Notes under the pieces: model-generated | The model's input: only the letters and a program-made list of their open reading frames with translations | The model's database searches: none | Told to the model about the DNA's origin: nothing | Made by a program: the position numbers and the translations under genes | Assembly: GCA_037833965.1 (NCBI GenBank) | Contig: AP031357.1 | Coordinates: 3,182,001 to 3,246,000 of the forward strand | Direction of reading: 5' to 3' | Source of the DNA: Marchantia polymorpha subsp. ruderalis | Taxonomy: Eukaryota; Streptophyta; Marchantiopsida; Marchantiales; Marchantiaceae | DNA length: 64,000 bases | Part shown: piece after piece, positions 11,301-49,829 of the stretch | Position numbering within the stretch: position 1 is the first letter of the stretch | Layout: every line of letters starts with the position of its first letter

Positions 11301-12299
11301 TGTAATAACCCATCAAAGGCTAAAACTGCAGTTTAGCAGCAAAAAGGTCGAACCCACAGGGACAGAGGCAACACACAGAGTACAAAGTGTCACGTTTCAA
11401 CAGACTATTGAAGAGTTTGAATTCTCAGGCGACTGTCACTCCCAGAAATACTGCAAGTGCTCAATTTGGAGGTCACTCCGAGGACGCACAGTGCAGCGTA
11501 GTTCACCCCAACAAACACCTGAAACTGGAAAAACACAACTAAGAGGCCGATTAGGACCTCCACTCAAGATTCAGGGGGAAAGTTTCTCAAGAGTACATTC
11601 AGAGGATATGCAGGTAGTGTTCCCCAACTCCGGATTGTTAACTCTGACTGCTAGAGCAAAGCACCTGGGTTGGACTTCCTACTTCGGATGCGGTACCTTC
11701 GTCAAACCAAAGTCACTCTCACGCGGTGAACAACACACTCACCTTACAAAACGCGCAGAGAATACAGGAACCGAACTGAGAAACTCAACTGAGAAAAGAT
11801 CCAATATCACACTATAACAATCTATTGACGAGTTTGAATTCTCATGCACTAGTCATTTCCAGAAATATTGCGGAGGCTACCCCCGAAGGCGCGTCAAGCA
11901 GCCTACAACCTAAATTGTTAACCAAGGTTTACTCAAAGTAACAAAACTTCACTTTGGCATTCATGGGGAAAAATCCCGAAGGAGTACAAGCAAGAAAAAT
12001 CACCCGAAGGTGTAAGTCCGAAGTGCTCAAGTATCTAACCAGTCCACTAGCTCTGAACATTCAACAATCATTCCAAAGGTGTAAGTCCGAACTGCTCAAG
12101 TATCTAACCAGTACACTAGCTCTGAACATTCAGCCGAAGGTCTTCAGCTACAAAATGCGGTAACTTCGTCAAGTTGTAGCTCCTCTTGCGCGGTGACAGA
12201 ACTAAGTACACAAACGCGCAGAGAAAATGAGTTCCTGAACTGCACTTCCAAAACTGGAAAATCTCCAAGGCAAAACTCCTTGAATCACTTTATATCTTC
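11301..12299 (-). other. 3' noncoding region of element L with internal repeats
   Basis: Homologous to 13117-14133, 47278-48282 and 48823-49829. It contains a duplicated block (about 11405-11465 and 11815-11875, sharing GAGTTTGAATTCTCA and TTCCAGAAATA-type sequence) and a repeated unit with GGTGTAAGTCCGAA ... CTCAAGTATCTAACCAGT near 12010-12130. At the outer edge is TCGAACCCACAGGGACAGAG, the complement of a CCCTGTGGGTTCGA motif also seen near the 3' ends of some plant LTRs. Confidence 0.65.
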
Positions 12300-13116
12300 T
12301 AAATCCTAACTAACTAACACCTCATTCTACGCTACACTCCATGTCATCTGCTATGCCTCCTGTGCAAAGTACGACCGCGCACTACGCCTCTACCAGACCT
12401 GTCCTCTGCTCTACTGCGCAATCCCAGCCGCCGCAACACCGCGGTCACCTCTGCTTCGAGGTTTGCAATGGCGTCTCACGACCTCGCCAGGAAGGCATCT
12501 AACCGCTTCGCCACTTGCCGCCGGCTCCGACTGTCACCCGACATCAAGGCCGCCGCACGAATCTCTAACTCGCGCAAGGTGATTCTCTCCTGCGCAGCCA
12601 CTTCCCAACGAGTGTAACCTCTCAGACAGCGGTTCACTCGCTCTACCATCTCTTCTCGCGTGCGATTTGTCGCGCGCCGGTTGTCGCCTTCTACCTCTAC
12701 CAACTGCAGCTTTGCCTCCACACGCTGCGCTCTCAATTTGTCGCATTGCGATTGCAGGCGATGTAGAAACTCCTCATCTGCCTAGCGTGCGATCTGACAC
12801 TGCTCCAGCAACCGTGTCTGCTGCACGAGCTCCTCCGCCAAAGTGCTATTCTGAGCTCGCTTAGAATTGAGCTCCGCCTCGAACTTCTCCCGCTGCTTCT
12901 CAAATTCTCTTTGTGCCTCGGCCGCCTTGTCATCGCGTAGCTTGTTTACTGCCTTCTGGAGTTTCCGCGAGAGTGTGAGATGTCAGTGCAGGGCATCGTT
13001 CTTCAATTCCAACTCCCTGCACTTGTTGTCTAGGGAACTCAGTACACGATTCATCGCGACTTTGGTTCGCGTCCGATTCCGCACCAATTCGACGTAGGAT
13101 CCCCGATGGCGGGGAT
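12300..13116 (-). pseudogene. Element L coding region, C-terminal coiled-coil part (decayed)
   Basis: Reading down from 13116 the frame resumes directly after the nested element, with RGSYVELVR.RTRTK followed by a heptad-like Glu/Arg/Gln-rich coiled coil and the conserved LRGYTRWEVAAQE and SGDSRSRR motifs. It matches the intact coiled-coil frames at 14134-15309, 46297-47277 and 48288-48822. It is broken by at least three stops: a TGA just after the first third, a TAG where the other copies have CAG (Gln) in the QARQADE-type motif, and a TGA before the final helix. The exact 3' limit is approximate. Confidence 0.7.
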
Positions 13117-14133
13117 TGTAATAACCCACCAAAGGCTAAAACTGCAATATAGTGGTAGAAAGGTCGAATCCACAGGGACAAAGGCAACACACAGAGTACA
13201 AAGTGTCACATTTAACAGACTATTGAAGAGTTTGAATTCTCAGGCGACTGTCACTCCCAGAATTACTGCAAGTGTTCACTCGGAGCTCACTCGGAGGTCG
13301 CACAGTGCAGCGTAGTTCACTCAACACACACACACACACACACCTGAAACTATAGAAACACAACTCAGAGGTCGGTTATGATCTCTACTCAAGATTTCAG
13401 GGGGAAAGTCTCTCGTAAGTACACTCAGCGAATCTGCGGGTAGTGACTCCCAACTCCGGCTTTTACAACCCTTCCACTAGTTTCTGCTAGCACAGAGAAC
13501 CCGGATTGGACTTTCTACTTCAGATTGAAGTCACTCACACGCGGTGAACAACACACTCAACTCACAAAATGCGCAGAGAACACAGGTCCGAACTGAGAGG
13601 CTCAACTGAGAAACGATCCAGTAGCACACCATAACAGTCTATTGAAGAGTTTGAATTCTTAGGCACTTGTCATTCCCAGAAATACTACAGAGGTTGCCCT
13701 GAAGGCACCTGCTGCAGCGTAACCTGAATTACAACCAAGGCTTACTCGAAGTAGCAAAACTTCAGTTTGGCATTCAGGGGAAAAATCCCGAAGGAGTACA
13801 ATCAGGAACAATCACTCGAAAGTGTAAGGGGGAACTGTTCAAGTATCTAACTAGTCACTAGCTCTGAGCATCGGCAATCACCCGCAGGTGTAGATCCGAA
13901 CTACTCAAGTCTCTAACCAGTGTACTAGCTCTGAACATTCGGCCGAAGTCCTTCAGCTACAAAATGCGGATCGCCAAGTTGTAGCTCCTCTTGCGTGGTG
14001 ACAGAACTAAGGACACAAACACGCAGAGAAAATGAGTTATTGATTTGCACTTCCGAACTGGAAGAATTCCAAGGCAAGACGCCTTGAACTACTTTATACC
14101 TTCTAAGTCCTAACTAACACTACACTACATGCG
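13117..14133 (-). other. 3' noncoding region of L2 with TATA box and AC repeat
   Basis: About 1 kb between the coding stop and the 3' terminus. On the minus strand a TATA-like GGTATAAAGT lies near 14093-14102, about 35 bp beyond the stop codon. It carries the same duplicated block as the other copies (GAGTTTGAATTCTCAGG near 13228 and GAGTTTGAATTCTTAGG near 13647) and an (AC)n microsatellite at about 13322-13342. A TATA box just behind the ORF is what an LTR U3/R boundary would look like, but no internal retrotransposon domain accompanies it. Confidence 0.6.
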
Positions 14134-15309
14134 CTACGCGCCTGCACGGAACCACGCTACACTACACTCCATAGAACCCGTGCTTCGCCTTCTGCGCGAC
14201 GGACTGCCGCGCACTAACTCCCTACCCTGCCAATCTTCAGCTCGACTGCGCAGTCCTAGCCGCCGCAACACCGCAAAAACCTCTGTCTCGAGGGTGGCCA
14301 TGGCGTCCCGCGACTTTGACAGAAACGAATCTAACTTCTTCGCCACTCGCCGCCGGCTCCGACTGTCACCTGACACCAAGCTCGCCGCACGAAGCTCTAA
14401 CTCGCTCATTGTGAGTTTCTCTTGCACCGCCACTTCCCAGTGGGTGTAACCTCTGAGATAGTGGTTGACTCGCCTTGCCAACTCTTCCTTCGTGCGATCT
14501 GACTCCCGCCGGAGATCGTCTTCAACTACAACCAACTGCAATTGGGCCTCCACACGCTGCGCTCTCAATTCCCCGCACTCAGATTGCAGTTTGCGGATTA
14601 ATTCTTCATCCGCCTGCCGTGCGAGCTGACACTGCTCTAACAACCGTGTTTGTCGCACGAGCTCCTCTGACAAAATTTGATTCTGAACCTGCTCAGAATC
14701 CAGCTCCTCTACGAGCTTCGCCTTCTCCTTGGCGAACTCCTTTGCCGCCTCTTTGATCTTATCGTCCTTCGACTTGTCGAGGACCTTGTGCATCTTCCGA
14801 GTGAGATTAAGGTGGCCCCACAGGCACTCATACTTCTCCCGCACATCTTTAAGTTCCCTATCCAGACGGGCCAACAACTTGCTGGTGTGGACTTTAGTGC
14901 GAGTTTGCCTACGCACTAATTCGACGTAGGACCCAGGCTGGCGGGGGTCTGCATACTTCTCCACTTTCCGATCAAGGTACCTCAACAGAGGTACCACTTG
15001 CTTGCAGAGCGCCGCCGTCGGCGTGCCTGCCCTCAACTCCTGGTCCACTCTAGCTAATAGCTTGCTGGTGTGGACTTTAGTGCGAGTCCGCCTGCGCACT
15101 AACTCGATGTAAGATCCCGGCTGAAGTGGGTCGGCGAATTTATCGACTTTGCGATCCAAGTACCTCAGCAACGGAATCACCTGCTCAGAGAGCGCCGCCG
15201 CCGGCGCTCCAACAATTTCCTCCTCCTCCTCCTCGGTGTCCCCTGCTCCTGACATTTCTTCGGTGGAGCCTCCGTCGTCATCATCCGAGTGGAGAATTTC
15301 AGTCGCCAT
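14134..15309 (-). CDS. Chimeric coiled-coil protein at the left arm junction
   Basis: From the ATG at 15309 (MATEILHSDDDD) the frame codes for 391 aa. An acidic N-terminus with a long Glu run leads to the module VIPLLRYLDRKVDKF.DP ... LLARVDQELR. At 15030 the arm-derived part ends, and the same module follows again in diverged form (KQVVPLLRYLDRKVEKYADP ... LLARLDREL). A long coiled coil follows, then an Arg/Ser-rich tail. The tandem module is the scar of joining R-derived sequence to L2's own gene; the fusion happens to stay in frame. Other family copies have one module. An upstream TTG at 15402 is also open, but ATG is preferred. Function unknown; a structural Gag-like role is only a guess. 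Confidence 0.6.
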   Translation of the reverse strand: MATEILHSDDDDGGSTEEMSGAGDTEEEEEEIVGAPAAALSEQVIPLLRYLDRKVDKFADPLQPGSYIELVRRRTRTKVHTSKLLARVDQELRAGTPTAALCKQVVPLLRYLDRKVEKYADPRQPGSYVELVRRQTRTKVHTSKLLARLDRELKDVREKYECLWGHLNLTRKMHKVLDKSKDDKIKEAAKEFAKEKAKLVEELDSEQVQNQILSEELVRQTRLLEQCQLARQADEELIRKLQSECGELRAQRVEAQLQLVVVEDDLRRESDRTKEELARRVNHYLRGYTHWEVAVQEKLTMSELELRAASLVSGDSRSRRRVAKKLDSFLSKSRDAMATLETEVFAVLRRLGLRSRAEDWQGRELVRGSPSRRRRSTGSMECSVAWFRAGA

Positions 15310-16924
15310 TGATTGCGTCGGCGACTGACCCGAGTGGGGCTGCACGTCGTCGACGTGTGCTGCCTGCGAAGGCACGGCTGCAGCCTCGCTGCTCTTCGCC
15401 AAAATGTCTAAGGCGGTAGGCGAATGTGCCCGTGCTGCATCCCCGCCGCCCGCTCATTCTACTTCTGCACCGCTCGAGCTCCTTTCTCTCTCGGCAAACT
15501 CTAATCGCCCTCAATTCCAAATCACGCGCACTCACTTCTCCCTCAATCACCAAGAAATCCCCTGTGCGGCGACGTCGAGAATGTTTAGCAGCCAGCAGAT
15601 GGACGCGCGCAGCTCGCACAAGAGATTGGAATCGCGAATTCAAGAATGGGACGCTCTCCGCCGCTCGGTCGAAGGTCATGGTCGGCTCTTGCTCGTGGAG
15701 GACGTCTCACTTGATGGCCGCGCCGGCTCTACGCTGGAACGGTCTTCGCTCTCACGCGCGGCTTCACGCTCCGCCGTCGCCGATTAAACTCTCACGCTCG
15801 AATTGGCGGATTTGAACTCCGCGAGCGTACTACCCCGCGGACATGGGAGCGCAGCGCCGAAGGCGAGTTTTCCGCCTTGCGCGGTACACTTGTTCGTACC
15901 GCCCCTCAGCCAATCCCCTTCTGCCTCGACGCGTGTGTCCGCATGTCGGACAAAAGTTCAACTCCTGCCTGTGCGCAGGCAGACTCCTCGGCGGATTCTC
16001 CGCCGGCGCGGAACTTCATCCTCCTGTGCACAGGCGCTCGCCTGTGCGCAGGCGAATTCCGTCCGCGGCGTCGCGCTGGCGCGGAAGGCGTTGACCGTGG
16101 TCAGCCGTCTCCGTCCAGACTGTCCGTTCCTTGTCTCTTCGTCGGCGCTTCCGCCGCCGCAACTCCATCCGTCCAAGAGCGCATCCACCCGTCCCGTCCG
16201 CATGGTCCGTACGGATTTGATTATTCTGGCGGCTCCTTGCTCGTCCGCGGCGCTGTGCTAGCGCAGAAGGCGCCGTACACTTTCTACCTCACAAGGCGCA
16301 TTTCTAGGGCCCAAGGCGGATTTCCCGCCGACGCCGAAGCGCCTGTGCACAGGCGAACGCCTGTGCGTAGGCGGACTTCGCGCCTCCCCAAACCCTACTT
16401 CGCCTGTGCACAGGCGAACTTCCTTCGTCCGCGCATAGGGCAATTCTTGATCCCCCTTCCGCGTAGGCGTAATTCCCGCCGGTGGCGAACTCCTTCCGCC
16501 GAAGGCGAACGTCTACGTATCTTCCAATAGGGATAACTCCCTAAGTCCTCATCCGTTCCAAGCGTTCTTGGACTCGTTGGAATCAGTGCGTCGAGCTCTT
16601 TCCATCGAGCCCCTAACTTGGTCAAGGCGCCCGAGGGTTGACCTAAATATGAAGGATTTCCCTACCGCCGCGGACGCAACTTCCGAAGGCGGGTTTTGCG
16701 CCTTGCGCCGCAGGGATCCTAACTGCAGAGCTCGCAGGGAGGGTGGTGCCCATCCTTACTGCTGCACCCCAAATCCTAGATTCTACAAGATCCCTCGAGA
16801 ATCCCCGCGATCTTCCGGATTCACTCTGTTTTGATGCACCGAAGGCTATTTACATTGCTGCCAGGGTACAGTTTTTTCCAAAAATGTTTTAATTTCCGCA
16901 AAATTCCAAAAGTGGGGTACCACA
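15030..16924 (-). mobile_element. Truncated copy of the nested element Rn (within the left arm)
   Basis: Duplicate of 44682-46576. The minus-strand 5' terminus TGTGGTACCCCAC is at 16924, preceded by the copied duplication (GACAA on the plus strand, 16925-16929). It contains the whole 5' leader (to about 15466), the start of the internally deleted coding region, and stops at the arm junction 15030. The 3' end is absent, so this piece arrived by copying rather than insertion. Confidence 0.75.
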
Positions 16925-19262
16925 GACAAAATCCGCACTGGGCCTGCTCAGAAATTAGTGCTTCCGTGACCTTCACCTGCTCCTTGGTGAGCTCTTCTAG
17001 TTTCCCATCCCTCACCTTCTCGGAGTACTTGTAGAATTTCTGATTGAGTTTATACTGACCCCACAAGCATTCATGCTTCTCCTTCAATTCCCTCAACTCC
17101 TAGTCCACTCTAGCTAGTAGCTTGCTGGTGTGGACTTTAGTGCGAGTCCGCCTGCGCACTAACTCGATGTAAGATCCCGGCTGAAGTGGGTCGGCGTATT
17201 TATCGACTTTGCGATCCAAGTACCTCAGCAACGGAATCACCTGCTCAAAGAGCGCCGCCGCCGGCGCTCCAACAATTTCCTCCTCCTCCTCCTCGGTGTC
17301 CCCTGCTCCTGACATTTCTTCGGTGGAGCCTCCGTCGTCATCATCCGAGTGGAGAATTTCAGTCGCCATTGATTGCGTCGGCGACTGACCCGAGTGGGGC
17401 TGCACGTCGTCGACGTGTGCTGCCTTCGAAGGCACTGCTCCAACCTCGCTGCTCTTCGCCAAAATGTCTAAGGCGGTAGGCGAATGTGCCCGTGCTGCAT
17501 CCTCGCCACCCGCTTGTTGGTCGTCTACCATATCCTCTCTGCCGCCGACGTCCGCCGCCGAAGGCGATTGAGCGGAGGGTGGCTGCGCGGGGTTTGATTG
17601 CGCATCGCGCACCGAAATTTCATCCCGCGGACAGTCACTCCGCTCCTCCGCCTGTTGCTGCTCCCTCGATCGGTCCGCGGGGGCTGTGCTTGGCCTGTGC
17701 GCAGGCGCAAATGCCGGCGCCTTGTCCGCCGCAGACGTAGCGCCGCGGACGTCCATCGCCAAAGGCGACATGGCCGGGGGCCGCTCGCCCGATGTCCCTT
17801 GGCCCTGAGGTCCTACCGCCGAAGGCGCATCTACCGGCGGATTACCCGCCGATGGTGCGGCCTCCGCATGCTCCCTGCTCGTATCTCCTCGGCTCGAAGG
17901 CCCTGGCGCCGAAGGCGCAAATCGCGGCGCGTTGTGTGCCGGAGGGTCTGGCCCCGAAGGCCAGTGTCTCGTAGGCGGCTCTTCCGCCGGCTCCTTCCCC
18001 TTCCTACGTTGGAACGGGGGTGATTCCTGCCTGTGCACAGGCGGACTGCTTCTTCCCATGCGTAGGCGTAGGTCTACATCCGCTTGTGGTCGTCTGTCCG
18101 CGGAGGCTCGTCCGTCCGCGGAGGCTCACCCGTCCGCGGAGGCTCGCCTGTGCGCAAACGGAACACCTGTCCGCAACGCACGTGGTAACTCCGGAGGCCC
18201 TTGGCCCGTAGGCGGCCTCTCGTCCGTCGAGGCTGCAGCGTGGTCCGTTGCTCCTGCGGACGTCCGCGCTCCCTCGTTCTTCTCTGGCGACGCACTTCCT
18301 TTCTCCGTCGCAATCGTCGCCGTGTCCGCGCTGTTGGCTGGTAACACCAGTCTGCGCGCCTTCTGCTTCGGCCGGCTGTATGACTCGTACAACGGCCGTG
18401 GTCGAATGGGAGCAGAGGGTTCTTGATGCTGCTCCTCTTCGGACTCCTCTCTCCATCGCCGCTTCCGCGGCGCTCGTGCTGCAGGAGTGTTCCTCCCTTT
18501 GTTCCTCCGCCTTGACGGAGTAGAAGTCGGTGACTCCTCTGCATCAGTGTCGACCTCATTCTCCCGCACATACTTCCCGGGATGGTCGACGGACAACGGC
18601 GGAAAACGCGCAAGCTCCGCCGCTGTCAAACAATTCCGCTGTCGATAAAAATTGATGAGGAAAGGAGAGAGATGGTTTAGAGTTCCCCCCTTCTCCTCAA
18701 AAGCGTGCTGTCGCATCACCCTGTGCAGGATGCTCGCCCAGTGAATTGGAGTTCCCTCGATGACGCACTCCACAAAAGAGACCTGCCACAATGTGATGTA
18801 GCAGGCACGGTGTGGCTGCAGTAATTGCATCAGCGCCGTGGACAAAGTCCGGCAGAATCGATCCTTGTAATCGCGGGTCCTGTACCCATTCTTGGTAGAC
18901 CTCCCGGTCTTGAACAGCTCCACAAATTGCGCCTCTTCCTGCTTGGTCACCTTGATGCTCTCACTGTTGAAGAGGAGGTGCCCTGGCATGCCGGCACATC
19001 TCCCCAATGCCTGCGCCCAATCTTGGACTGTCCACCGATCAACATGCGGACGCAATCCGCGCGAGGGTGGTCCCTGTGGCTCTAGCCACTCGCGCACCAT
19101 ATCCGCACAGATGTAGTTCCATCCCCATAGCAGGAAATCGAGCTTTCTTGCTATCAAGCGCTCCTCGAAAGCGCGCAGCCCGTTCTGTGGTAGACGGAGC
19201 GGCAGCATCCGCAATCGGCCCGGTCTCGTCATTGCGTTCTTGGAGTTCGCCCGCCCGCTCAT
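16925..19262 (-). pseudogene. Left-arm copy of the element R long coding region
   Basis: Duplicate of 42344-44681, with the same in-frame TGA (18126-18128), the same TAG (17100-17102) and the same 1-nt deletion close to 16937. The N-terminal block (about 18640-19262) includes the motifs LDFLLWGWN, MVREWLEP, GYRTRDYKDRF, HWASILHRVMRQHA and LSPFLINFYRQRN. A long low-complexity Pro/Ser/Ala/Gly linker follows, then the acidic stretch and VIPLLRYLDRK module. The only coding difference noticed against the right arm is one Arg-to-Cys codon. Because the nonsense codons are shared, they predate the duplication. Confidence 0.75.
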
Positions 19263-19275
19263 TCTACTTCCGCTC

Positions 19276-20133
19276 TGCAACCTCCGGGCTGACTCTCACT
19301 CAGGTTTACCTCTGATGGCTTTGTGGTAGCGCATCATGGTTCTAGAAGACTAAGATTCATACTCTCACTCATGTCCCAAACACCTTCTCTTACAAACTCT
19401 CATGTATCACTCCAACTCACACACAACTCTCCTCACATCACCCTCTTCACATAAATGCAAACACACGTCGATACTCCAAGATACTCAAAAACTTCACTCC
19501 TTCATTACTGAAACAAGTCCTCACACATGACTCTCCAAACTTGCTTGAGAGGTGCTACTCTACCTCTCTATTTATACTACTTGAGAAGTTACCATAGTAA
19601 CATGTGGTAATTTCTCCTAACTTACTTTTACCTAGGTAAGTTTGACTAACCTTCTCTACGTGGCAACATGCCATTGGCCTACCTAAACCTTCTAGAAGCT
19701 TCCGGAATCCAAGGTTGAGGTGGCGACATGCCATTGGAAGCTTTTAAACTTCTACAAGCTTCCTAGCCACTAAGTCAACATTAGACTTAGTCTAGCCAAT
19801 CATCTTTCATACATTTAGTCAAACCAATCAAATCCAAGCTTCTAGTCAAATATCTAATCCCTTGGAATCTAGAACTTTTGTATAAGACAAAATAGAAGTG
19901 CTCACTCCTTGTAAAAGACAAAATAGAAGTGCTCACTCCATTCTTCTAGAACTCCGCTAATTACTCCGCCAACTATAGACATTGTAGCTAAACTTAGTCA
20001 TGACTAGATAAACTTAGTTATAACTAACTAGTTTAGTCATAACTAGCTAGTCTTAGCTATGCCTTGGCTAATCATCCTTATTCCCTTGACCACTTCTAAG
20101 ACTTAGTACATATGTGCAACACCCGGTCTTACA
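19276..20133 (-). repeat. 3' LTR of Gypsy copy 1
   Basis: 858 bp with TG...CA ends; TATA box TATAAATA at 19569-19576 on the minus strand. Matches 26277-27134 in length and sequence by eye. Next to it, 20134-20142, is the polypurine tract GGGGGTAAA (minus strand). Confidence 0.92.
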
Positions 20134-20156
20134 TTTACCCCCGGACTAAGATTTCA

Positions 20157-24923: not shown

Positions 24924-25155
24924 TTCCAACTAATTTTTTTTTTTTTTTTTTTTTTTTTCTTTTCTATTGGAAATTTATATGGGGCTTCCTAATACAATAT
25001 AAACAACACTAACTCCATCCTTGAGTAATTCATCAAAGGAAACACAAAAGGAATTGGTTGTTCCAAGATAGCCAAAGCTCTCTCCTCTCCTAGGCATACG
25101 ATGAGTCTTACCCTCATCATCATCTTCTCCATCATTCGAATGATGATCTCCATCT

Positions 25156-26272: not shown

Positions 26273-26276
26273 AAAA

Positions 26277-31649: not shown

Positions 31650-31654
31650 TGCGT

Positions 31655-33053: not shown

Positions 33054-33058
33054 ACTCG

Positions 33059-35328: not shown

Positions 35329-35332
35329 TTTT

Positions 35333-35350
35333 TGGTTCCGTTGCCGGGAC
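35333..35350 (+). other. Primer binding site, Gypsy copy 2
   Basis: TGGTTCCGTTGCCGGGAC, four bases after the LTR. It is complementary to a tRNA 3' end GTCCCGGCAACGGAA-CCA, the plant tRNA-Glu type (family knowledge, not searched). Confidence 0.75.
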
Positions 35351-36005
35351 CTCAATCTAGAAGGCGGAATGTTTAGGATTCGATTTCTAGCTCGAGAGAA
35401 AGTATCCATGAGGGATCACTTGGTGTTAACATTGGGGAATGAAAGAGCGGAGAGTGTGCTTGAGAGCGAAATTCCATTTGTTTATCCCATAGTCTCATAT
35501 GATAGCCTAGAAGTGATTTTGTATGTTTTGTTCACGTAAACATGTCTTTTTGAGAGAAAAGTGATCTTAGACACCGAAAAGTATTTTTGAAGGTATTCTT
35601 CAAAGTTTTTATTGATTTTAGAGTGAAAGATAGAGAAAATTTACGTTTTTGTTTCAGGTCCAGATCATGTGTTAACAGAAAGATATGAGAGTTAGAAGTT
35701 GAGTGGGTTTTCACGGGTATCAAAAGTCTGCTCTCTGGAAAGTTTGTACAGAGTTGATTACTTTTTCTGTATTTCAATTTAGGCTTTGAAACTTCGTACG
35801 AGTGTGTATTGGAAGATAAGCTACGTTTGAGTCAAAATTTCACTGAGAGATCACGTCTAGAGACGAAGTTATGTTGATTTGAAGTTGAGGGGGTACAAAA
35901 GCAAGATAACAAAGCAAAAGTTTTTGATTTCTTTATTCACAGTTTTCGTCAAGTAGATAGCGTTTCTGGGAGAGGTCTTTTGAGTGGTTTCTACCTTATG
36001 GGAAA
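35351..36005 (+). other. Gypsy copy 2 leader with a small ORF
   Basis: A 56-codon frame from ATG 35369 to 35539 starts just after the primer site. It has no recognised domain and may be a chance or upstream ORF. Splice-acceptor-like TTTTTGTTTCAG (near 35647) and TTCTGTATTTCAATTTAG (near 35780) occur downstream, so leader splicing is possible but unproven. Confidence 0.4.
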
Positions 36006-36449
36006 ATGAGTGAACAAGAAGGTTGGAAGGTTAGGTTATCCAAAGTACCTCAAGGCTTGGATGTTATAGTGTCTTTAGACTCCAATACAAGAGAATTCAA
36101 GGTGGAGTTTGAAGAAAGAGTAGTGAGTCAATCTCCAAGAGTCAAACGTGAAACTTGTTTTTATTGTGGAGAGGAGGGCCATAAGGTTGTCAATTGTTCC
36201 CTGCGGAACAAAGATAGAAGATTGAGGAGCAAGAGGAACTTGGGAGATTTGAAACTTCACTTGGGACCATCATCGCCACATGAATCCCAAAGCGCCACCT
36301 TCTGTGACAATTGCGGAGTGATTGGGCTACCAGCGGGACACGAATGCAGCGGAGTGAAGGCACTTCTGGAATCACTTGTGGAAGGGTTTGACGGCAAGCT
36401 AAGTGCTGAAACAGAGAAAGTGACCTCAGCGGGTTCAAGCTCCAACTGA
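36006..36449 (+). CDS. Extra zinc-knuckle ORF upstream of gag, Gypsy copy 2 (147 aa)
   Basis: Same protein as 25156-25599: a CCHC knuckle at residues 51-64 and a second C-X2-C-X8-H-X-C cluster at 100-114, with a Ser-rich tail. The start ATG at 36006 follows GGAAA. It is an independent ORF: its stop at 36447-36449 is about 230 bp before gag, with an intervening poly(A) tract near 36645-36671. Two identical copies with an open frame suggest the ORF is maintained. A nucleic-acid chaperone or packaging accessory role is inferred from the knuckles only. Confidence 0.8.
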   Translation: MSEQEGWKVRLSKVPQGLDVIVSLDSNTREFKVEFEERVVSQSPRVKRETCFYCGEEGHKVVNCSLRNKDRRLRSKRNLGDLKLHLGPSSPHESQSATFCDNCGVIGLPAGHECSGVKALLESLVEGFDGKLSAETEKVTSAGSSSN

Positions 36450-36644
36450 AGATGGAGATCATCATTCGAATGATGGAGAAGATGATGATGAGGGTAAGAC
36501 TCATCGTATGCCTAGGAGAGGAGAGAGCTTTGGCTATCTTGGAACAACCAATTCCTTTTGTGTTTCCTTTGATGAATTACTCAAGGATGGAGTTAGTGTT
36601 GTTTATATTGTATTAGGAAGCCCCATATAAATTTCCAATAGAAA

Positions 36645-36671
36645 AGAAAAAAAAAAAAAAAAAAAAAAAAA
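36645..36671 (+). repeat. Internal poly(A) tract just upstream of gag
   Basis: A run of roughly 27-30 A residues ends 12 bases before the Gag start codon; the opposite-strand copy (T-tract near 24934-24960) differs by one base. It lies between ORF1 and gag rather than at the element end. Confidence 0.85.
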
Positions 36672-36682
36672 ATTAGTTGGAA

Positions 36683-41449: not shown

Positions 41450-41463
41450 TGAAATCTTAGTCC

Positions 41464-41472
41464 GGGGGTAAA
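41464..41472 (+). other. Polypurine tract, Gypsy copy 2
   Basis: GGGGGTAAA lies directly before the 3' LTR, the expected site for plus-strand DNA priming. Confidence 0.7.
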
Positions 41473-42330
41473 TGTAAGACCGGGTGTTGCACATATGTAC
41501 TAAGTCTTAGAAGTGGTCAAGGGAATAAGGATGATTAGCCAAGGCATAGCTAAGACTAGCTAGTTATGACTAAACTAGTTAGTTATAACTAAGTTTATCT
41601 AGTCATGACTAAGTTTAGCTACAATGTCTATAGTTGGCGGAGTAATTAGCGGAGTTCTAGAAGAATGGAGTGAGCACTTCTATTTTGTCTTTTACAAGGA
41701 GTGAGCACTTCTATTTTGTCTTATACAAAAGTTCTAGATTCCAAGGGATTAGATATTTGACTAGAAGCTTGGATTTGATTGGTTTGACTAAATGTATGAA
41801 AGATGATTGGCTAGACTAAGTCTAATGTTGACTTAGTGGCTAGGAAGCTTGTAGAAGTTTAAAAGCTTCCAATGGCATGTCGCCACCTCAACCTTGGATT
41901 CCGGAAGCTTCTAGAAGGTTTAGGTAGGCCAATGGCATGTTGCCACGTAGAGAAGGTTAGTCAAACTTACCTAGGTAAAAGTAAGTTAGGAGAAATTACC
42001 ACATGTTACTATGGTAACTTCTCAAGTAGTATAAATAGAGAGGTAGAGTAGCACCTCTCAAGCAAGTTTGGAGAGTCATGTGTGAGGACTTGTTTCAGTA
42101 ATGAAGGAGTGAAGTTTTTGAGTATCTTGGAGTATCGACGTGTGTTTGCATTTATGTGAAGAGGGTGATGTGAGGAGAGTTGTGTGTGAGTTGGAGTGAT
42201 ACATGAGAGTTTGTAAGAGAAGGTGTTTGGGACATGAGTGAGAGTATGAATCTTAGTCTTCTAGAACCATGATGCGCTACCACAAAGCCATCAGAGGTAA
42301 ACCTGAGTGAGAGTCAGCCCGGAGGTTGCA
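41473..42330 (+). repeat. 3' LTR of Gypsy copy 2
   Basis: 858 bp, matching 34471-35328 by eye, followed by the target duplication GAGC at 42331-42334. Confidence 0.93.
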
Positions 42331-42343
42331 GAGCGGAAGTAGA

Positions 42344-44681
42344 ATGAGCGGGCGGGCGAACTCCAAGAACGCAATGACGAGACCGGGCCGATTGCGGATG
42401 CTGCCGCTCCGTCTACCACAGAACGGGCTGCGCGCTTTCGAGGAGCGCTTGATAGCAAGAAAGCTCGATTTCCTGCTATGGGGATGGAACTACATCTGTG
42501 CGGATATGGTGCGCGAGTGGCTAGAGCCACAGGGACCACCCTCGCGCGGATTGCGTCCGCATGTTGATCGGTGGACAGTCCAAGATTGGGCGCAGGCATT
42601 GGGGAGATGTGCCGGCATGCCAGGGCACCTCCTCTTCAACAGTGAGAGCATCAAGGTGACCAAGCAGGAAGAGGCGCAATTTGTGGAGCTGTTCAAGACC
42701 GGGAGGTCTACCAAGAATGGGTACAGGACCCGCGATTACAAGGATCGATTCCGCCGGACTTTGTCCACGGCGCTGATGCAATTACTGCAGCCACACCGTG
42801 CCTGCTACATCACATTGTGGCAGGTCTCTTTTGTGGAGTGCGTCATCGAGGGAACTCCAATTCACTGGGCGAGCATCCTGCACAGGGTGATGCGACAGCA
42901 CGCTTTTGAGGAGAAGGGGGGAACTCTAAACCATCTCTCTCCTTTCCTCATCAATTTTTATCGACAGCGGAATTGTTTGACAGCGGCGGAGCTTGCGCGT
43001 TTTCCGCCGTTGTCCGTCGACCATCCCGGGAAGTATGTGCGGGAGAATGAGGTCGACACTGATGCAGAGGAGTCACCGACTTCTACTCCGTCAAGGCGGA
43101 GGAACAAAGGGAGGAACACTCCTGCAGCACGAGCGCCGCGGAAGCGGCGATGGAGAGAGGAGTCCGAAGAGGAGCAGCATCAAGAACCCTCTGCTCCCAT
43201 TCGACCACGGCCGTTGTACGAGTCATACAGCCGGCCGAAGCAGAAGGCGCGCAGACTGGTGTTACCAGCCAACAGCGCGGACACGGCGACGATTGCGACG
43301 GAGAAAGGAAGTGCGTCGCCAGAGAAGAACGAGGGAGCGCGGACGTCCGCAGGAGCAACGGACCACGCTGCAGCCTCGACGGACGAGAGGCCGCCTACGG
43401 GCCAAGGGCCTCCGGAGTTACCACGTGCGTTGCGGACAGGTGTTCCGTTTGCGCACAGGCGAGCCTCCGCGGACGGGTGAGCCTCCGCGGACGGACGAGC
43501 CTCCGCGGACAGACGACCACAAGCGGATGTAGACCTACGCCTACGCATGGGAAGAAGCAGTCCGCCTGTGCACAGGCAGGAATCACCCCCGTTCCAACGT
43601 AGGAAGGGGAAGGAGCCGGCGGAAGAGCCGCCTACGAGACACTGGCCTTCGGGGCCAGACCCTCCGGCACACAACGCGCCGCGATTTGCGCCTTCGGCGC
43701 CAGGGCCTTCGAGCCGAGGAGATACGAGCAGGGAGCATGCGGAGGCCGCACCATCGGCGGGTAATCCGCCGGTAGATGCGCCTTCGGCGGTAGGACCTCA
43801 GGGCCAAGGGACATCGGGCGAGCGGCCCCCGGCCATGTCGCCTTTGGCGATGGACGTCCGCGGCGCTACGTCTGCGGCGGACAAGGCGCCGGCATTTGCG
43901 CCTGCGCACAGGCCAAGCACAGCCCCCGCGGACCGATCGAGGGAGCAGCAACAGGCGGAGGAGCGGAGTGACTGTCCGCGGGATGAAATTTCGGTGCGCG
44001 ATGCGCAATCAAACCCCGCGCAGCCACCCTCCGCTCAATCGCCTTCGGCGGCGGACGTCGGCGGCAGAGAGGATATGGTAGACGACCAACAAGCGGGTGG
44101 CGAGGATGCAGCACGGGCACATTCGCCTACCGCCTTAGACATTTTGGCGAAGAGCAGCGAGGTTGGAGCAGTGCCTTCGAAGGCAGCACACGTCGACGAC
44201 GTGCAGCCCCACTCGGGTCAGTCGCCGACGCAATCAATGGCGACTGAAATTCTCCACTCGGATGATGACGACGGAGGCTCCACCGAAGAAATGTCAGGAG
44301 CAGGGGACACCGAGGAGGAGGAGGAGGAAATTGTTGGAGCGCCGGCGGCGGCGCTCTTTGAGCAGGTGATTCCGTTGCTGAGGTACTTGGATCGCAAAGT
44401 CGATAAATACGCCGACCCACTTCAGCCGGGATCTTACATCGAGTTAGTGCGCAGGCGGACTCGCACTAAAGTCCACACCAGCAAGCTACTAGCTAGAGTG
44501 GACTAGGAGTTGAGGGAATTGAAGGAGAAGCATGAATGCTTGTGGGGTCAGTATAAACTCAATCAGAAATTCTACAAGTACTCCGAGAAGGTGAGGGATG
44601 GGAAACTAGAAGAGCTCACCAAGGAGCAGGTGAAGGTCACGGAAGCACTAATTTCTGAGCAGGCCCAGTGCGGATTTTGTC
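42344..44681 (+). pseudogene. Element R long coding region, N-terminal and middle part
   Basis: From the ATG at 42344 one frame runs to the nested insertion at 44681 with only three lesions: TGA at 43478-43480, TAG at 44504-44506, and a 1-nt deletion near 44670. N-terminal block (about 1-230): LDFLLWGWN, MVREWL, RTRDYKDRF, HWASILHRVMRQHA, LSPFLINFYRQRN. Then a basic RKRRW patch, a long Pro/Ser/Ala/Gly/Thr linker with SADGR- and PSAxGP-type repeats, an acidic DDDD...EEEEEE segment, the VIPLLRYLDRK module and the start of the coiled coil. The frame continues at 48288. The layout recalls plant transposon-associated proteins (globular domain plus coiled coil), but I cannot name a family. Confidence 0.7.
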
Positions 44682-46296
44682 TGTGGTACCCCACTTTTGG
44701 AATTTTGCGGAAATTAAAACATTTTTGGAAAAAACTGTACCCTGGCAGCAATGTAAATAGCCTTCGGTGCATCAAAACAGAGTGAATCCGGAAGATCGCG
44801 GGGATTCTCGAGGGATCTTGTAGAATCTAGGATTTGGGGTGCAGCAGTAAGGATGGGCACCACCCTCCCTGCGAGCTCTGCAGTTAGGATCCCTGCGGCG
44901 CAAGGCGCAAAACCCGCCTTCGGAAGTTGCGTCCGCGGCGGTAGGGAAATCCTTCATATTTAGGTCAACCCTCGGGCGCCTTGACCAAGTTAGGGGCTCG
45001 ATGGAAAGAGCTCGACGCACTGATTCCAACGAGTCCAAGAACGCTTGGAACGGATGAGGACTTAGGGAGTTATCCCTATTGGAAGATACGTAGACGTTCG
45101 CCTTCGGCGGAAGGAGTTCGCCACCGGCGGGAATTACGCCTACGCGGAAGGGGGATCAAGAATTGCCCTATGCGCGGACGAAGGAAGTTCGCCTGTGCAC
45201 AGGCGAAGTAGGGTTTGGGGAGGCGCGAAGTCCGCCTACGCACAGGCGTTCGCCTGTGCACAGGCGCTTCGGCGTCGGCGGGAAATCCGCCTTGGGCCCT
45301 AGAAATGCGCCTTGTGAGGTAGAAAGTGTACGGCGCCTTCTGCGCTAGCACAGCGCCGCGGACGAGCAAGGAGCCGCCAGAATAATCAAATCCGTACGGA
45401 CCATGCGGACGGGACGGGTGGATGCGCTCTTGGACGGATGGAGTTGCGGCGGCGGAAGCGCCGACGAAGAGACAAGGAACGGACAGTCTGGACGGAGACG
45501 GCTGACCACGGTCAACGCCTTCCGCGCCAGCGCGACGCCGCGGACGGAATTCGCCTGCGCACAGGCGAGCGCCTGTGCACAGGAGGATGAAGTTCCGCGC
45601 CGGCGGAGAATCCGCCGAGGAGTCTGCCTGCGCACAGGCAGGAGTTGAACTTTTGTCCGACATGCGGACACACGCGTCGAGGCAGAAGGGGATTGGCTGA
45701 GGGGCGGTACGAACAAGTGTACCGCGCAAGGCGGAAAACTCGCCTTCGGCGCTGCGCTCCCATGTCCGCGGGGTAGTACGCTCGCGGAGTTCAAATCCGC
45801 CAATTCGAGCGTGAGAGTTTAATCGGCGACGGCGGAGCGTGAAGCCGCGCGTGAGAGCGAAGACCGTTCCAGCGTAGAGCCGGCGCGGCCATCAAGTGAG
45901 ACGTCCTCCACGAGCAAGAGCCGACCATGACCTTCGACCGAGCGGCGGAGAGCGTCCCATTCTTGAATTCGCGATTCCAATCTCTTGTGCGAGCTGCGCG
46001 CGTCCATCTGCTGGCTGCTAAACATTCTCGACGTCGCCGCACAGGGGATTTCTTGGTGATTGAGGGAGAAGTGAGTGCGCGTGATTTGGAATTGAGGGCG
46101 ATTAGAGTTTGCCGAGAGAGAAAGGAGCTCGAGCGGTGCAGAAGTAGAATGAGCGGGCGGCGGGGATGCAGCACGGGCACATTCGCCTACCGCCTTAGAC
46201 ATTTTGGCGAAGAGCAGCGAGGCTGCAGCCGTGCCTTCGCAGGCAGCACACGTCGACGACGTGCAGCCCCACTCGGGTCAGTCGCCGACGCAATCA

Positions 46297-47277
46297 ATGG
46301 CGACTGAAATTCTCCACTCGGATGATGACGACGGAGGCTCCACCGAAGAAATGTCAGGAGCAGGGGACACCGAGGAGGAGGAGGAGGAAATTGTTGGAGC
46401 GCCGGCGGCGGCGCTCTCTGAGCAGGTGATTCCGTTGCTGAGGTACTTGGATCGCAAAGTCGATAAATACGCCGACCCACTTCAGCCGGGATCTTACATC
46501 GAGTTAGTGCGCAGGCGGACTCGCACTAAAGTCCACACCAGCAAGCTATTAGCTAGAGTGGACCAGGAGTTGAGGGAATTGAAGGAGAAGCATGAATGCT
46601 TGTGGGGTCAGTATAAACTTAATCAGAAATTCTACAAGTACTCCGAGAAGGTGAGGGATGGGAAACTGGAAGAGCTCACCAAGGAGCAGGTGAAGGTCAC
46701 AGAAGCGCTAATTTCTGAGCAGGCCCAGAATCGGATTTTGTCAGAGGAGCTCGTGCGACAGACGCGGTTGTTGGAACAGTGTCAGCTCGCACGGCAGGCG
46801 GATGAGGATGTAATCCGCAGGCTACAGTCAGAGTGTGGCGAATTGAGAGCGCAACGTGCTGAGGCCGAATCGCAATTAGTGATAGCTGAAGAGGATCGCA
46901 GGAAGGAGGCAGATCGCACAAAGGTGGAGACGGCGAGGCGTGTCGCCCACTGTCTCAAGGGCTACGCCCACTGGGAAGTGGCGGCGCAGGAGAAACTCAC
47001 ACTGCGTGAGTTTGAACTTCGCGCAGCTGGGTTGTTGTCAGGCGACAGTAGGAGTCGGCGGAAGGTAGCAAAGAAGCTCGATGCTTTTCTGTCGAGGGCG
47101 CAGGATACCATGTCCGCCCTCGAAGTGGAGGTGTCCGCGGCGTTGCAACGATTGGGGCTGCGCAGTCGAGCGGAAGACTGGCAGGGTAGGGAGTTAGTGC
47201 GCGGCAGTCCGTCGCGCAGGAGACGTAGCACAGGTTCCGCGGAGTGTAGTGTAGCGTGGTCCCGTGCAGGCGTGTAG
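46297..47277 (+). CDS. Coiled-coil protein of element Rn (326 aa)
   Basis: Intact frame from MATEILHSDDDD to the TAG at 47275. It has an acidic N-terminus with six consecutive Glu, the module VIPLLRYLDRKVDKYADP ... TRTKVHTSKLLARVDQEL, then about 150 residues of coiled coil rich in Glu, Arg, Gln and Leu. The motifs LKGYAHWEVAAQEKL, SGDSRSRRKVAKKLDAFL and an Arg/Ser-rich tail follow. The element's original start codon (46149) is out of frame with it because of the internal deletion, so translation would have to begin at 46297 or be lost. It is the best-preserved full coiled-coil copy not involved in the arm junction. Confidence 0.6.
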   Translation: MATEILHSDDDDGGSTEEMSGAGDTEEEEEEIVGAPAAALSEQVIPLLRYLDRKVDKYADPLQPGSYIELVRRRTRTKVHTSKLLARVDQELRELKEKHECLWGQYKLNQKFYKYSEKVRDGKLEELTKEQVKVTEALISEQAQNRILSEELVRQTRLLEQCQLARQADEDVIRRLQSECGELRAQRAEAESQLVIAEEDRRKEADRTKVETARRVAHCLKGYAHWEVAAQEKLTLREFELRAAGLLSGDSRSRRKVAKKLDAFLSRAQDTMSALEVEVSAALQRLGLRSRAEDWQGRELVRGSPSRRRRSTGSAECSVAWSRAGV

Positions 47278-48282
47278 CATAGTGCAGTGTAGTGTTAGGT
47301 AGGACTTAGAAGGTATAAAATATTTCCATGCGTTTTGCCTGGGGTTCTTTCCCATCAGAAGTGCAGATCAGGAACCCATTTCCTTTGCGTGTTTGTGTCC
47401 TTGAGCTCTGTCACCACGCACGAGGAGTTACAACTTAGCGTTCCGCATTTTGTAGCTGAAGGCCTGCGGCCGAATGTTCAGAGCTAGTACATTGGTTAGA
47501 GACTTGAGTAGTTCGGAACTGCACCTGCGGGTGACTGCCGATGCTCAGAGCCAGTGACTAGTTAGATACTTGAACAGTTTCGCCCCTACACCTTCGAGTG
47601 TTTCTTTCTGATTGTACTCCTTTGGGATTTTTCCCCTGAATGCCAAAGTGAAGTTTTGCTACTTCGTGTAAGCCTTGGTTGTAAATTCAGGTTACGCTGC
47701 AGCAGGTGCCTTGAGGGTAACCCCTGTAGTATTTCTGGGAATGACAAGTGCCTGAGAATTCAAACTCTTCAATAGACTGTTGTTGTGTTACAGGAATGTT
47801 TCACAGTGAGTCCTTCAGTGCGGACCTGTGTTCTCTGCGCGTTTTGTGAGTTGAGAGTGTTGTTCACCGCGTATGAGTGACTTCGATCCGAAGTAGGCAG
47901 TCCAAACCGGGTTTCCTACGCTAGCAGCAAGCTAGTGGAAGCGTTGTAAAAACCGGAGTTGGAAGTCACTACCCGCAGCTTCGCTGAGTGTACTCTTGAG
48001 AGACTTCCCCCCTGAAATCTTGAGTAGAGGTCCTAACGGATCTCTGGGTTGTGTTTCTGTAGTTTCAGGTGTGTGTGTGTGTGTGTACGCTGCACTGTGC
48101 GACCTCCGAGTGCGCTCCGAGTGGACACTTGCAGTATTTCTGGGAGTGACAGTCGCCTGAGAATTCAAACTCATCAATAGTCTGTTAAACGTGACACTTT
48201 GTACCCTGTGTGTTCCTCTGTCCCTGTGGGTTCGACCTTTCTACCACTATATTGCAGTTTTAGCCTTTAGTGGGTTATTACA
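47278..48282 (+). other. 3' noncoding region of Rn, TATA box plus duplicated block
   Basis: A TATA-like GGTATAAAATA lies near 47309-47319, about 35 bp past the stop. Two related blocks follow (about 47725-47785 and 48130-48190: GTATTTCTGGGA.TGACA ... GAGAATTCAAACTC.TCAATAG), then a (TG)n run near 48068-48086 and CCCTGTGGGTTCGACC near 48219-48234 before the terminus. It is nearly identical to 48823-49829. Confidence 0.7.
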
Positions 48283-48287
48283 TTGTC

Positions 48288-48822
48288 AGAGGAGCTCGTG
48301 CGACAGACGCGGTTGTTAGAGCAGTGTCAGCTCGCACAACAGGCGGATGAGGATGTAATCCGCAGGCTACAGTCAGAGTGTGGCGAATTGAGAGCGCAAC
48401 GTGCTGAGGCCGAATCGCAATTAGTGGTAATTGAAGAGGATCGCAGGCGGGAGGCAGATCGCACAAAGGTGGAGACGGCGAGGCGTGTCGCCCACTGTCT
48501 CAAGGGCTACGCCCACTGGGAAGTGGCGGCGCAGGAGAAACTCACACTGCGTGAGTTTGAACTTCGCGCAGCCGGGTTGTTGTCAGGCGACAGTAGGAGT
48601 TGGCGGAAGGTAGCAAAGAAGCTCGACGCTTTTCTGTCGAAGGCGCGGGATACCATGTCCGCCCTCGAAGTGGAGGTGTCTGCGGCGTTGCAGCGATTGG
48701 GACTGCGCAGTCGAGCGGAAGACTGGCAGGGTAGGGAGTTAGTGCGCGGCAGTCCGTCGCGCAGGAGACGTAGCACAGGTTCCGCGGAGTGTAGTGTAGC
48801 GTGGTTCCATGCAGGCGTGTAG
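48288..48822 (+). pseudogene. Element R coding region, C-terminal coiled-coil part
   Basis: Continuation of the frame cut at 44681: EELVRQTRLLEQCQLA...QADEDVIRRLQSECGELRAQ, LKGYAHWEVAAQEKL, SGDSRSW, the final helix and the Arg/Ser-rich tail, ending in TAG at 48820-48822. This part is open by itself. It is separated from the N-terminal part by Rn and, in the older state, by the lesions listed for 42344-44681. With those discounted, the parent protein would have been about 957 aa. Confidence 0.7.
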
Positions 48823-49829
48823 CGTAGTGCAGTGTAGTTCTAGTTAGGACTTAGAAGGTATAAAATAGTTCCAGGCGTTTTGCCTGGGGTTCTTTCCCAA
48901 TTTCGGAAGTGCAGATCAGGAACTCATTTTCTCTGCGTGTTTGTGTCCTTAGTTCTGTCACCACGCAAGAGGAGCTACCACTTGGCGTTCCGCATTTTGT
49001 AGCTGAAGGCCTTCGGCCGAATGTTCAGAGCTAGTACATTGGATAGAGACTTGAGTAGTTCGGATCTACACCTGCGGGTGATTGCCGATGCTCAGAGCCA
49101 GTGACTAGTTAGATACTTGAATAGTTTCGCCCCTATACCTTCGAGTGTTTGTTTCTGATTGTACTCCGTTGGGATTTTTCCCCTGAATGCCAAAGTGAAG
49201 TTTTGTTACTTCGTGTAAGCCTTGGTTGTAAATTCAGGTTACGCTGCAGCAGGTGCCTTTGGGGTAACCCCTGTAGTATTTCTGGGAATGACAAGTGCCG
49301 GAGAATTCAAACTCTTCAATAGACTGTTGTTGTGTTACTGGAATGTTTCTCAGTGAGTCCTTCAGTGCGGACCTGTGTTCTCTGCGCGTTTTGTGAGTTG
49401 AGAGTGTTGTTCACCGCGTATGAGTGACTTCGATCCGAAGTAGGCAGTCCAAACCGGGTTTCCTACGCTAGCAGCAAGCTAGTGGAAGCGTTGTAAAAAC
49501 CGGAGTTGGAAGTCACTACCCGCAGCTTCGCTGAGTGTACTCTTGAGAGACTTCCCCCCTGAAATCTTGAGTAGAGGTCCTAACGGATCTCTGGGTTGTG
49601 TTTCTGTAGTTTCAGGTGTGTGTGTGTGTGTGTACGCTGCACTGTGCGACCTCCGAGTGCGCTCCGAGTGGACACTTGCAGTATTTCTGGGAGTGACAGT
49701 CGCCTGAGAATTCAAACTCCTCAATAGTCTGTTAAACGTGACACTTTGTACCCTGTGTGTTCCTCTGTCCCTGTGGGTTCGACCTTTCTACCACTATATT
49801 GCAGTTTTAGCCTTTAGTGGGTTATTACA
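48823..49829 (+). other. 3' noncoding region of element R
   Basis: Same layout as 47278-48282: TATA-like GGTATAAAATA about 35 bp after the stop (near 48857), duplicated GAATTCAAACTC blocks, a (TG)n tract near 49615-49633, CCCTGTGGGTTCGACC near 49768, then the terminus at 49829 and the ACTCG duplication. Confidence 0.7.

What the first reader, a model, noticed from the sequence alone, without database searches (positions are those of the whole stretch)
11301..49829. Undescribed element family: 13-bp inverted ends, 5-bp target duplications, one long coiled-coil gene, no visible transposition enzyme
Four copies (L, L2, R, Rn) share the same ends: 5' TGTGGTA(A/C)CCCAC at 31649, 28658, 33059 and 44682; 3' GTGGGTTATTACA-type at 11301, 13117, 49829 and 48282. 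Each pair is bounded by its own perfect 5-bp repeat (TGCGT, GGGAT, ACTCG, TTGTC), so the borders are secure. The deduced unit is leader, one gene of about 957 codons, 3' region. No RT, integrase, DDE or other enzyme motif is visible in it. It is either a non-autonomous element moved by a retroviral-type integrase, a new TIR element, or an outsized solo LTR carrying its own gene.
Basis: partly seen in the sequence, partly recalled or inferred. Interest (0 to 1): 0.88.

Follow-up and report, generated by a model that had tools for sequence, protein, structure and literature searches.

The report
Liverwort retrotransposon with gene-bearing LTRs
The mysterious "element" is the unusually long end-repeat of an abundant retrotransposon in a liverwort genome, and it is notable because this repeat, normally non-coding, carries a large gene that shows signs of being preserved by natural selection.

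Summary
The four units are real: correct ends, four of four perfect 5-bp duplications. They are not a new transposon class but solo LTRs of a Ty3/gypsy retrotransposon, in a genome matching Marchantia polymorpha Tak-2 v7.1. Elsewhere the same 5.3-5.4-kb unit flanks a 5.8-kb gag-pro-pol region as direct repeats. Five of eight such full-length elements tested have perfect 5-bp duplications outside both LTRs. What stays unusual is the gene. An ORF of 1,029-1,040 codons in intact copies ends just before the TATA box shared by 17 of 18 copies, so it appears to lie wholly in U3, much like MMTV sag. It looks constrained: median dN/dS 0.33, 0.14 in the N-terminal domain, about 1.1 in the two wrong frames. 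Homologues found were Marchantia proteins named as hypothetical (27 of 30) or unnamed. Function is unknown; my best guess is a nuclear accessory or regulatory protein. I saw no plant precedent in the listings and passages I could search.

The parts
33059..49829 (+). Solo LTR R (segments 33059-34470, 42331-44681, 48283-49829), interrupted by a gypsy element and by Rn; TSD ACTCG
44682..48282 (+). Solo LTR Rn, nested in R; internally deleted; TSD TTGTC
13117..28658 (-). Solo LTR L2 (older), nested in L; its middle holds a 12-kb copy of R-side sequence; TSD GGGAT
11301..31649 (-). Solo LTR L (older; about 66-78% identical DNA to the other units in matching parts); TSD TGCGT
34258..34470 (+). R: first 71 codons of the LTR gene, before the gypsy insertion
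42332..44681 (+). R: N-terminal domain and middle of the LTR gene; in-frame stops at 43478-43480 and 44504-44506
48288..48822 (+). R: C-terminal part of the LTR gene, after Rn
   Evidence: (read by eye)
46153..47277 (+). Rn: ORF over the C-terminal part of the LTR gene
47314..47319 (+). TATA box of Rn, 969 bp from the LTR 3' end; the U3/R boundary is inferred to lie just downstream
48859..48864 (+). TATA box of R
   Evidence: read by eye
34471..42330 (+). Different nested Ty3/gypsy element: 858-bp identical LTRs, one 1590-aa gag-pol ORF, 4-bp repeat GAGC on both sides

Best explanation
The unit is the LTR of a Ty3/gypsy retrotransposon in a genome that is very probably Marchantia polymorpha. 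Shown here: LTR of mostly 5.3-5.4 kb with TGT..ACA ends and 5-bp target duplications; full elements LTR - PBS-like - gag-pro - TAG - pol - PPT - LTR of about 16.5 kb; a gene of 1,029-1,040 codons inside the LTR whose stop codon begins 36-37 bp before the GGTATAAA motif shared by nearly all copies; a substitution pattern typical of coding constraint. Inferred: transcription starts just after that TATA box, so about 4.4 kb of the LTR is U3 and about 0.95 kb is R-U5. The gene is then the 3'-most ORF of the genomic RNA, downstream of pol and PPT (the sag/nef position). Reverse transcription copies it into both LTRs. LTR-LTR recombination removes gag-pol and leaves solo LTRs like the four in this window, each carrying a copy or remnant of the gene. 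Most likely role (weakest step, about 0.35): a nuclear accessory or regulatory protein of the element, with a helical N-terminal domain, basic NLS-like motifs and a C-terminal coiled coil, perhaps activating the LTR or countering silencing. I put the LTR identity at about 0.97 and the U3 placement at about 0.85.
For: LTR identity: shared PBS-like downstream flank and shared purine-rich upstream flank. gag, CCHC, protease, RT, RNase H and integrase between two units that are 99.83% identical. 727 LTR-PBS and 748 PPT-LTR junctions, reversed-pattern controls 0. 31 of 64 PBS junctions examined have a PPT-LTR junction 5.7-5.9 kb downstream on the same strand, 0 of 64 on the opposite strand. Perfect 5-bp duplications around the complete element in 5 of 8 tested, which is 5 of the 6 with both ends found, against 0 of 30 mismatched pairings. 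U3 placement: TATA box 962-984 bp from the 3' end in 17 of 18 copies, and the 3' ~1 kb conserved at 0.90-0.98 against 0.77-0.92 upstream in 14 copies; stop codon 36-37 bp before GGTATAAA in the four intact copies. Gene: median dN/dS 0.33 over 251 of 496 possible pairs, wrong frames 1.10 and 1.11, residues 81-330 0.138, residues 761-1040 0.238, against gag 0.11-0.20 in 6 pairs and pol 0.065 in 1 pair.
Against: No transcript data, so the R/U5 boundary and any mRNA for the gene are inferred. A second TATAAA, inside the ORF, recurs in 4 of 18 copies, and L042 lacks the main one. The PBS-like sequence starts 22-23 nt from the LTR end, further than the 0-5 bp that a plant survey looked for. Of 8 full-length candidates, 2 had one or both ends not found and 1 had unlike flanks; L049-L063-L048 also has unlike outer flanks; of the 18 paired units L055 fits neither class. 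29 of 64 PBS junctions have no PPT-LTR partner within 12 kb, and some of the 31 are copies of one another in the chromosome-U repeat. Most sampled copies of the gene are broken: an ORF over 1,000 codons in 4 of 18 units, two of them near-identical. dN/dS pairs are not independent and include degenerate copies. The functional guess rests on sequence features; no informative family or fold match was found.
Confidence: 0.93

Rival explanations
1. A TIR DNA transposon or non-autonomous element moved in trans by a retroviral-type integrase, with the gag-pol copies being chance nestings.
For: 13-bp imperfect inverted ends, 5-bp duplications around single units, no enzyme in the unit.
Against: Direct-repeat pairs around gag-pol at a near-constant 5.8-kb spacing, 31 of 64 against 0 of 64 on the opposite strand; 5-bp duplications outside the pair in 5 of 8; PBS-like and PPT sequences abutting the units.
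Confidence: 0.02
2. The LTR ORF is a passenger: a captured fragment or chance ORF without function, kept open by composition or recent spread.
For: Most sampled copies are broken; no homologue of known function; Pro/Ser-rich middle with weaker constraint (0.588).
Against: dN/dS 0.33 overall and 0.138 in residues 81-330 at median dS 0.28, while the other two frames give about 1.1. The N-terminal value is like that of gag.
Confidence: 0.06
3. On origin only: the gene is a former 3' extra ORF of an Athila/Tat-type element that became part of the LTR when the PPT moved upstream of it.
For: It would follow pol and PPT directly; pol ends about 20 bp before the PPT. Related plant elements carry an env-like or other ORF after pol (PMC1142308 and PMC6317226, passages).
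Against: No homology to a Pfam family of such ORFs was seen; no strongly hydrophobic stretch. It is compatible with the main account.
Confidence: 0.4
4. The LTR protein is a structural or assembly partner of Gag rather than a nuclear regulator.
For: Probable coiled coil and basic stretches.
Against: No gag-like Pfam match; NLS-like basic motifs are among the conserved positions. Neither role was tested.
Confidence: 0.2

Closest known systems
Mouse mammary tumour virus sag gene (and MMTV-like endogenous retroviruses with sag in solo LTRs)
   Same: Most of the gene lies in U3 of the LTR, hence in both LTRs and in solo LTRs (PMC4667437, passages).
   Different: Plant Ty3/gypsy element; no match to a known protein family; about 1,040 codons; no env; no promoter for the gene identified.
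[not shown]
   Same: Ty3/gypsy in Marchantia without an additional RNase H.
   Different: No LTR-encoded gene is mentioned in what I read; clade membership was not tested here by a tree.
Plant OTA elements (Athila, Ogre, Retand) with extra ORFs and LTRs up to about 5 kb (PMC6317226, passages)
   Same: Very long LTRs, extra ORF, 5-bp duplications.
   Different: [quoted passage not shown] the passages do not say whether any lies inside an LTR, so a precedent in its supplements is not excluded. Here the ORF is inside the LTR and the internal region is almost pure gag-pol.
Retrosat2/RIRE3/RIRE8 of rice with ORF0 (PMC3485330, passages)
   Same: LTRs of about 3 kb plus an extra ORF of unknown function.
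   Different: [quoted passage not shown] similarity to the present protein was not tested.

Membership tests
LTR retrotransposon (solo LTRs in the window) | Direct repeats of the unit around an internal region | tested here: met
LTR retrotransposon (solo LTRs in the window) | Target-site duplication outside the LTR pair | tested here: met
   5 of 8 perfect
LTR retrotransposon (solo LTRs in the window) | PBS complementary to a tRNA directly after the 5' LTR | tested here: inconclusive
   PBS-like TGGCGCCGCTGCCGGGGA recurs but starts 22-23 nt from the LTR end; its likeness to the tRNA-Asp type is recalled, no tRNA was compared
LTR retrotransposon (solo LTRs in the window) | Polypurine tract directly before the 3' LTR | tested here: met
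Ty3/gypsy superfamily | gag, protease, RT, RNase H, then integrase | tested here: met
   the protease match is just below its Pfam cut-off
Tat lineage (angiosperm type) | Additional archaeal-type RNase H | tested here: not met
   [not shown]
[not shown]
   no labelled reference set was at hand
Retrovirus-like element with env | Membrane-spanning envelope-type protein | tested here: not met
   highest 19-residue hydropathy means 1.09, 1.14 and 1.35 in P0001-P0003
TIR DNA transposon | Own or related transposase with the same ends | tested here: inconclusive
   none seen in the unit; no dedicated search for a transposase-bearing relative was run
MMTV sag | Homologous protein | tested here: not met
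   no such Pfam match in the members scanned, no PDB match

The most novel reading that the evidence does not exclude
A plant retrotransposon family has placed a large gene for a nuclear regulatory (anti-silencing or trans-activating) protein in U3, convergent with retroviral sag/nef-type genes. An insertion can then keep a complete gene cassette even after gag-pol is lost as a solo LTR, so that thousands of LTRs form a dispersed gene family able to act in trans.
Probability: 0.35. Interest if true: 0.8.

Novelty: new variant of a known kind. Interest (0 to 1): 0.6.

Why it matters
LTRs are ordinarily non-coding (PMC4667437, passage). A constrained gene of about 1,040 codons in the LTR of a very abundant plant retrotransposon would be, as far as the listings of my searches reach, the first such case in plants. 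It would show that a sag-like arrangement can arise outside retroviruses, make solo LTRs gene carriers, and explain a set of 'hypothetical proteins' of Marchantia. In a model liverwort, whether an LTR-borne protein helps its element escape silencing becomes directly testable.

Tried and rejected
Rejected: new TIR element, non-autonomous element, chance repeat. Not answered, then dropped: an iMet-type PBS pattern; the real flank was read instead. Not supported: self-priming; the longest complement of spacer plus PBS in the L045 LTR is 8 bp and 260 of 300 shuffles reach that; L051 has a 10-bp match that was not put to shuffles. Led nowhere: two AlphaFold models of the N-terminal domain, mean pLDDT 41.4 and 52.6; a Foldseek PDB search whose best E is 2.4; Pfam and PDB sequence searches of the protein. 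The gene was not traced outside Marchantia: 30 profile hits, 27 named M. polymorpha and 3 unnamed, with only 7,990 candidates scored and a length filter. pol by contrast has Riccia sorocarpa relatives at 42-76% identity among the 120 of 6,461 hits shown. A genome-wide count of intact gene copies could not be run. In one search the loose pattern counted L031 as internal; by eye it is not, so 3 of 30 3' ends (L033, L034, L037) run into an internal region. Dropped before counting: 245 of 496 pairs with 300 codons or fewer; for the domain values also pairs with dS of 0.1 or less or under about 60% of the codons.
Full report
WHAT WAS CLAIMED AND WHAT IS THERE. BLAST of the window against itself shows the nesting. 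R is 33059-34470, 42331-44681 and 48283-49829. It is interrupted by a 7.86-kb Ty3/gypsy element with 858-bp identical LTRs (34471-42330) and by Rn (44682-48282). On the other strand L2 lies inside L. A 12,110-bp stretch is shared by both sides in inverted orientation at 99.96%, so the inner part of the L2 side is a recent copy of R-side sequence.

WHERE IT IS. The window lies in a 241,466,482-base assembly of 9 contigs. MpTak2_v7.1 of Marchantia polymorpha has 9 sequences and 241,484,302 bp (PMC13078153, passages), some 18 kb more. Protein hits to the unit's gene are all M. polymorpha where named. The species is inferred with high confidence; the exact assembly is probable.

COPY NUMBER. The exact 19-base 5' end (TGTGGTAMCCCACTTTTGG) occurs 3,020 times, the exact 20-base 3' end 3,456 times and the TATA motif 3,142 times. 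Each reversed-pattern control is 0. These are exact-match counts.

THE UNIT IS AN LTR. I fetched 20 stretches around end pairs. In 18 paired units (L039-L056), 6 have perfect 5-bp duplications and L041 has 4 of 5. Of the other 11, 10 have a shared sequence outside and L055 has neither. The 3' end is followed by TAAGAAGCCGACAACTTCTTTTTGGCGCCGCTGCCGGGGA or a close variant in L044, L049-L052 and L054; L053 shares only its first part. The 5' end is preceded by ...CACAATTGAGGAGGGG(A/G)GCA in L039, L046, L048, L053 and L054. Between L054 and L053 lies a 5,796-bp region (L060) with two long ORFs in one frame, 943 and 946 codons, parted by a single stop. Pfam gives Retrotrans_gag 1.1e-12, zinc knuckles and an aspartyl-protease match (7.7e-05, just below its cut-off) for the first, and RVT_1 8.5e-27, RNase H domains, integrase zinc-binding and integrase core for the second. 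The two flanking units are 99.83% identical. Another pair, L049-L063-L048, has 95.3% identical LTRs and outer flanks that do not match; I take it as a recombinant. Genome-wide there are 727 LTR-PBS junctions and 748 PPT-LTR junctions. Of 64 PBS junctions I examined (of 100 listed, of 727), 35 have a PPT-LTR junction within 12 kb on the same strand, 31 of them at 5.7-5.9 kb, against 0 on the opposite strand; 29 have none. A few of the 31 are copies of each other in the repeated region of C1. For 8 plus-strand pairs that I picked from the lists I fetched only the outer ends. 5 have perfect 5-bp duplications (TCTCC, CTGCT, GCGCC, ATATA, AGCGG), 1 has unlike flanks, and in 2 one or both ends were not found where expected; 0 of 30 mismatched pairings agree.

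THE GENE APPEARS TO LIE IN U3. In 17 of 18 copies a TATAAA box sits 962-984 bp from the LTR 3' end, in the context GAAGGTATAAA; L042 lacks it, and a second TATAAA inside the ORF recurs in 4 of 18 (L045, L048, L056, Rn). Mean pairwise identity over 14 copies is 0.90-0.98 downstream of about position 4,400 and 0.77-0.92 upstream, as expected if R-U5 starts there. Of 7 loci examined the gene start was found in 6, and 4 of these are intact (L045, L048, L053, L054): the ORF runs from position 1,246-1,248 for 1,029-1,040 codons, and its stop codon begins 36-37 bp before GGTATAAA. None of the 18 copies has TATAAA in the first 1.2 kb, so a separate promoter for the gene is not evident. Pol ends some 20 bp before the PPT, and gag starts some 60 bp after the start of the PBS-like sequence. 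The internal region is therefore almost pure gag-pro-pol and the extra gene sits in the LTR.

THE GENE LOOKS CONSTRAINED. Nei-Gojobori comparison of 32 rows from 19 of the 20 loci (L043 gave none) and the window, 251 of 496 pairs with more than 300 codons, gives median dN/dS 0.330 in frame, and 1.10 and 1.11 in the other two frames. By part: residues 1-80 0.572, 81-330 0.138, 331-520 0.375, 521-760 0.588, 761-1040 0.238. Gag gives 0.114-0.195 in 6 pairs and pol 0.065 in 1 pair, after which that script stopped. The pairs are not independent, L053/L054 are near-identical, and the two window arms are near-duplicates. Among 18 paired units 4 have an ORF over 1,000 codons, so most sampled copies are broken.

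THE PROTEIN. The first search gave 4 hits and the profile search 30: 27 named M. polymorpha hypothetical proteins and 3 unnamed. In Pfam no family is matched by more than 2 of 31 members, best E 1.9e-4 to an extensin model; that table shows no cut-offs (six members). There is no PDB match. Across six members, invariant positions include basic motifs in the linker (KR, and RPKQKAR type) and a block at the start of the coiled-coil part. No stretch is strongly hydrophobic (highest 19-residue mean 1.09 in P0001, 1.35 in P0003). The coiled coil is judged from a simple heptad count. The N-terminal domain is predicted mostly helical at low confidence (pLDDT 52.6, pTM 0.47), and Foldseek finds nothing (best E 2.4). 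The nuclear-regulator reading rests on these features and on analogy; it is inference.

GAG-POL EXPRESSION. The stop between the ORFs is TAG followed by CAATTA in L060 and L063, and by CATTTA in the diverged L067. With the stop left open in a pattern that fixes CAATTA, 499 junctions match and the 100 listed all have TAG. TAG CAA TTA is, from recall, the classic leaky context of plant viruses. Programmed readthrough is likely but untested.

AN ODDITY. The PBS-like sequence starts 22-23 nt after the LTR end, and a 6-bp hairpin can form in the spacer. A plant survey looked for TGG within 0-5 bp (PMC6317226), and Diaspora's PBS begins 5 bp after its LTR (PMC1142308, passages). How strong-stop DNA and end processing cope with this is unexplained.

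WHAT IS KNOWN. LTRs are 'ordinarily non-coding'; in MMTV most of sag lies in U3, and sag copies were mostly found as solo LTRs (PMC4667437, passages). Tat lineages without the extra RNase H exist in both Marchantia genomes studied (PMC10508981, section 5). Plant OTA elements have extra ORFs and LTRs up to about 5 kb; extra ORFs are placed there only relative to the polyprotein, so an LTR location is not excluded by what I read (PMC6317226, passages). Seven text searches showed no plant LTR-encoded gene in their listings; several listings were capped (for example 15 of 184 papers), and subscription papers and supplements were not searched.

VERDICT. Observation confirmed; interpretation partly supported. 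It is a Ty3/gypsy retrotransposon, so a new variant of a known kind, with a coding LTR as the surprising feature.

Noticed in passing
window 15030-27138 (-) and 34467-46576 (+): 12,110-bp inverted duplication at 99.96% identity. One boundary coincides with the 5' terminus of the nested gypsy element, the other lies inside LTR coding homology, and no matching 5-bp repeat was seen around it. This suggests break-induced replication or conversion between two copies of that gypsy element.
   Followed up: partly
C2:31351085-31384686, C3:20847407-20880732, C4:10351167-10373596: Junctions repeat at constant spacing of 11.1-11.2 kb, which suggests head-to-tail arrays (LTR-internal)n of the same element. 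The L061-L054-L060-L053 array was read directly.
   Followed up: partly
L060 around 2978-2982 (-) and 499 genomic places: In-frame TAG between gag-pro and pol; the 100 listed of 499 matches all keep TAG before CAATTA.
   Followed up: partly
LTR-PBS junctions, e.g. L060 end: 22-23-nt spacer with a possible 6-bp hairpin between LTR and PBS-like sequence.
   Followed up: partly
window 4861-10906: Many direct degenerate repeats (mostly 65-77% identity) in AT-rich DNA beside L; not identified.
   Followed up: no
window 53190-53740: 15-, 30- and 45-bp tandem repeats with open frames on both strands.
   Followed up: no
G000 C1 about 2.2-3.3 Mb: End-pattern places recur in the same order three times, roughly 340-410 kb apart; this agrees with the triplicated region reported on chromosome U.
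   Followed up: no
NCBI proteins AXG93_* (27 of P0003-P0006 and P0009-P0034): Proteins annotated as M. polymorpha hypothetical proteins are relatives of the LTR gene, so probably transposon genes counted as host genes; their genomic context was not examined.
   Followed up: partly
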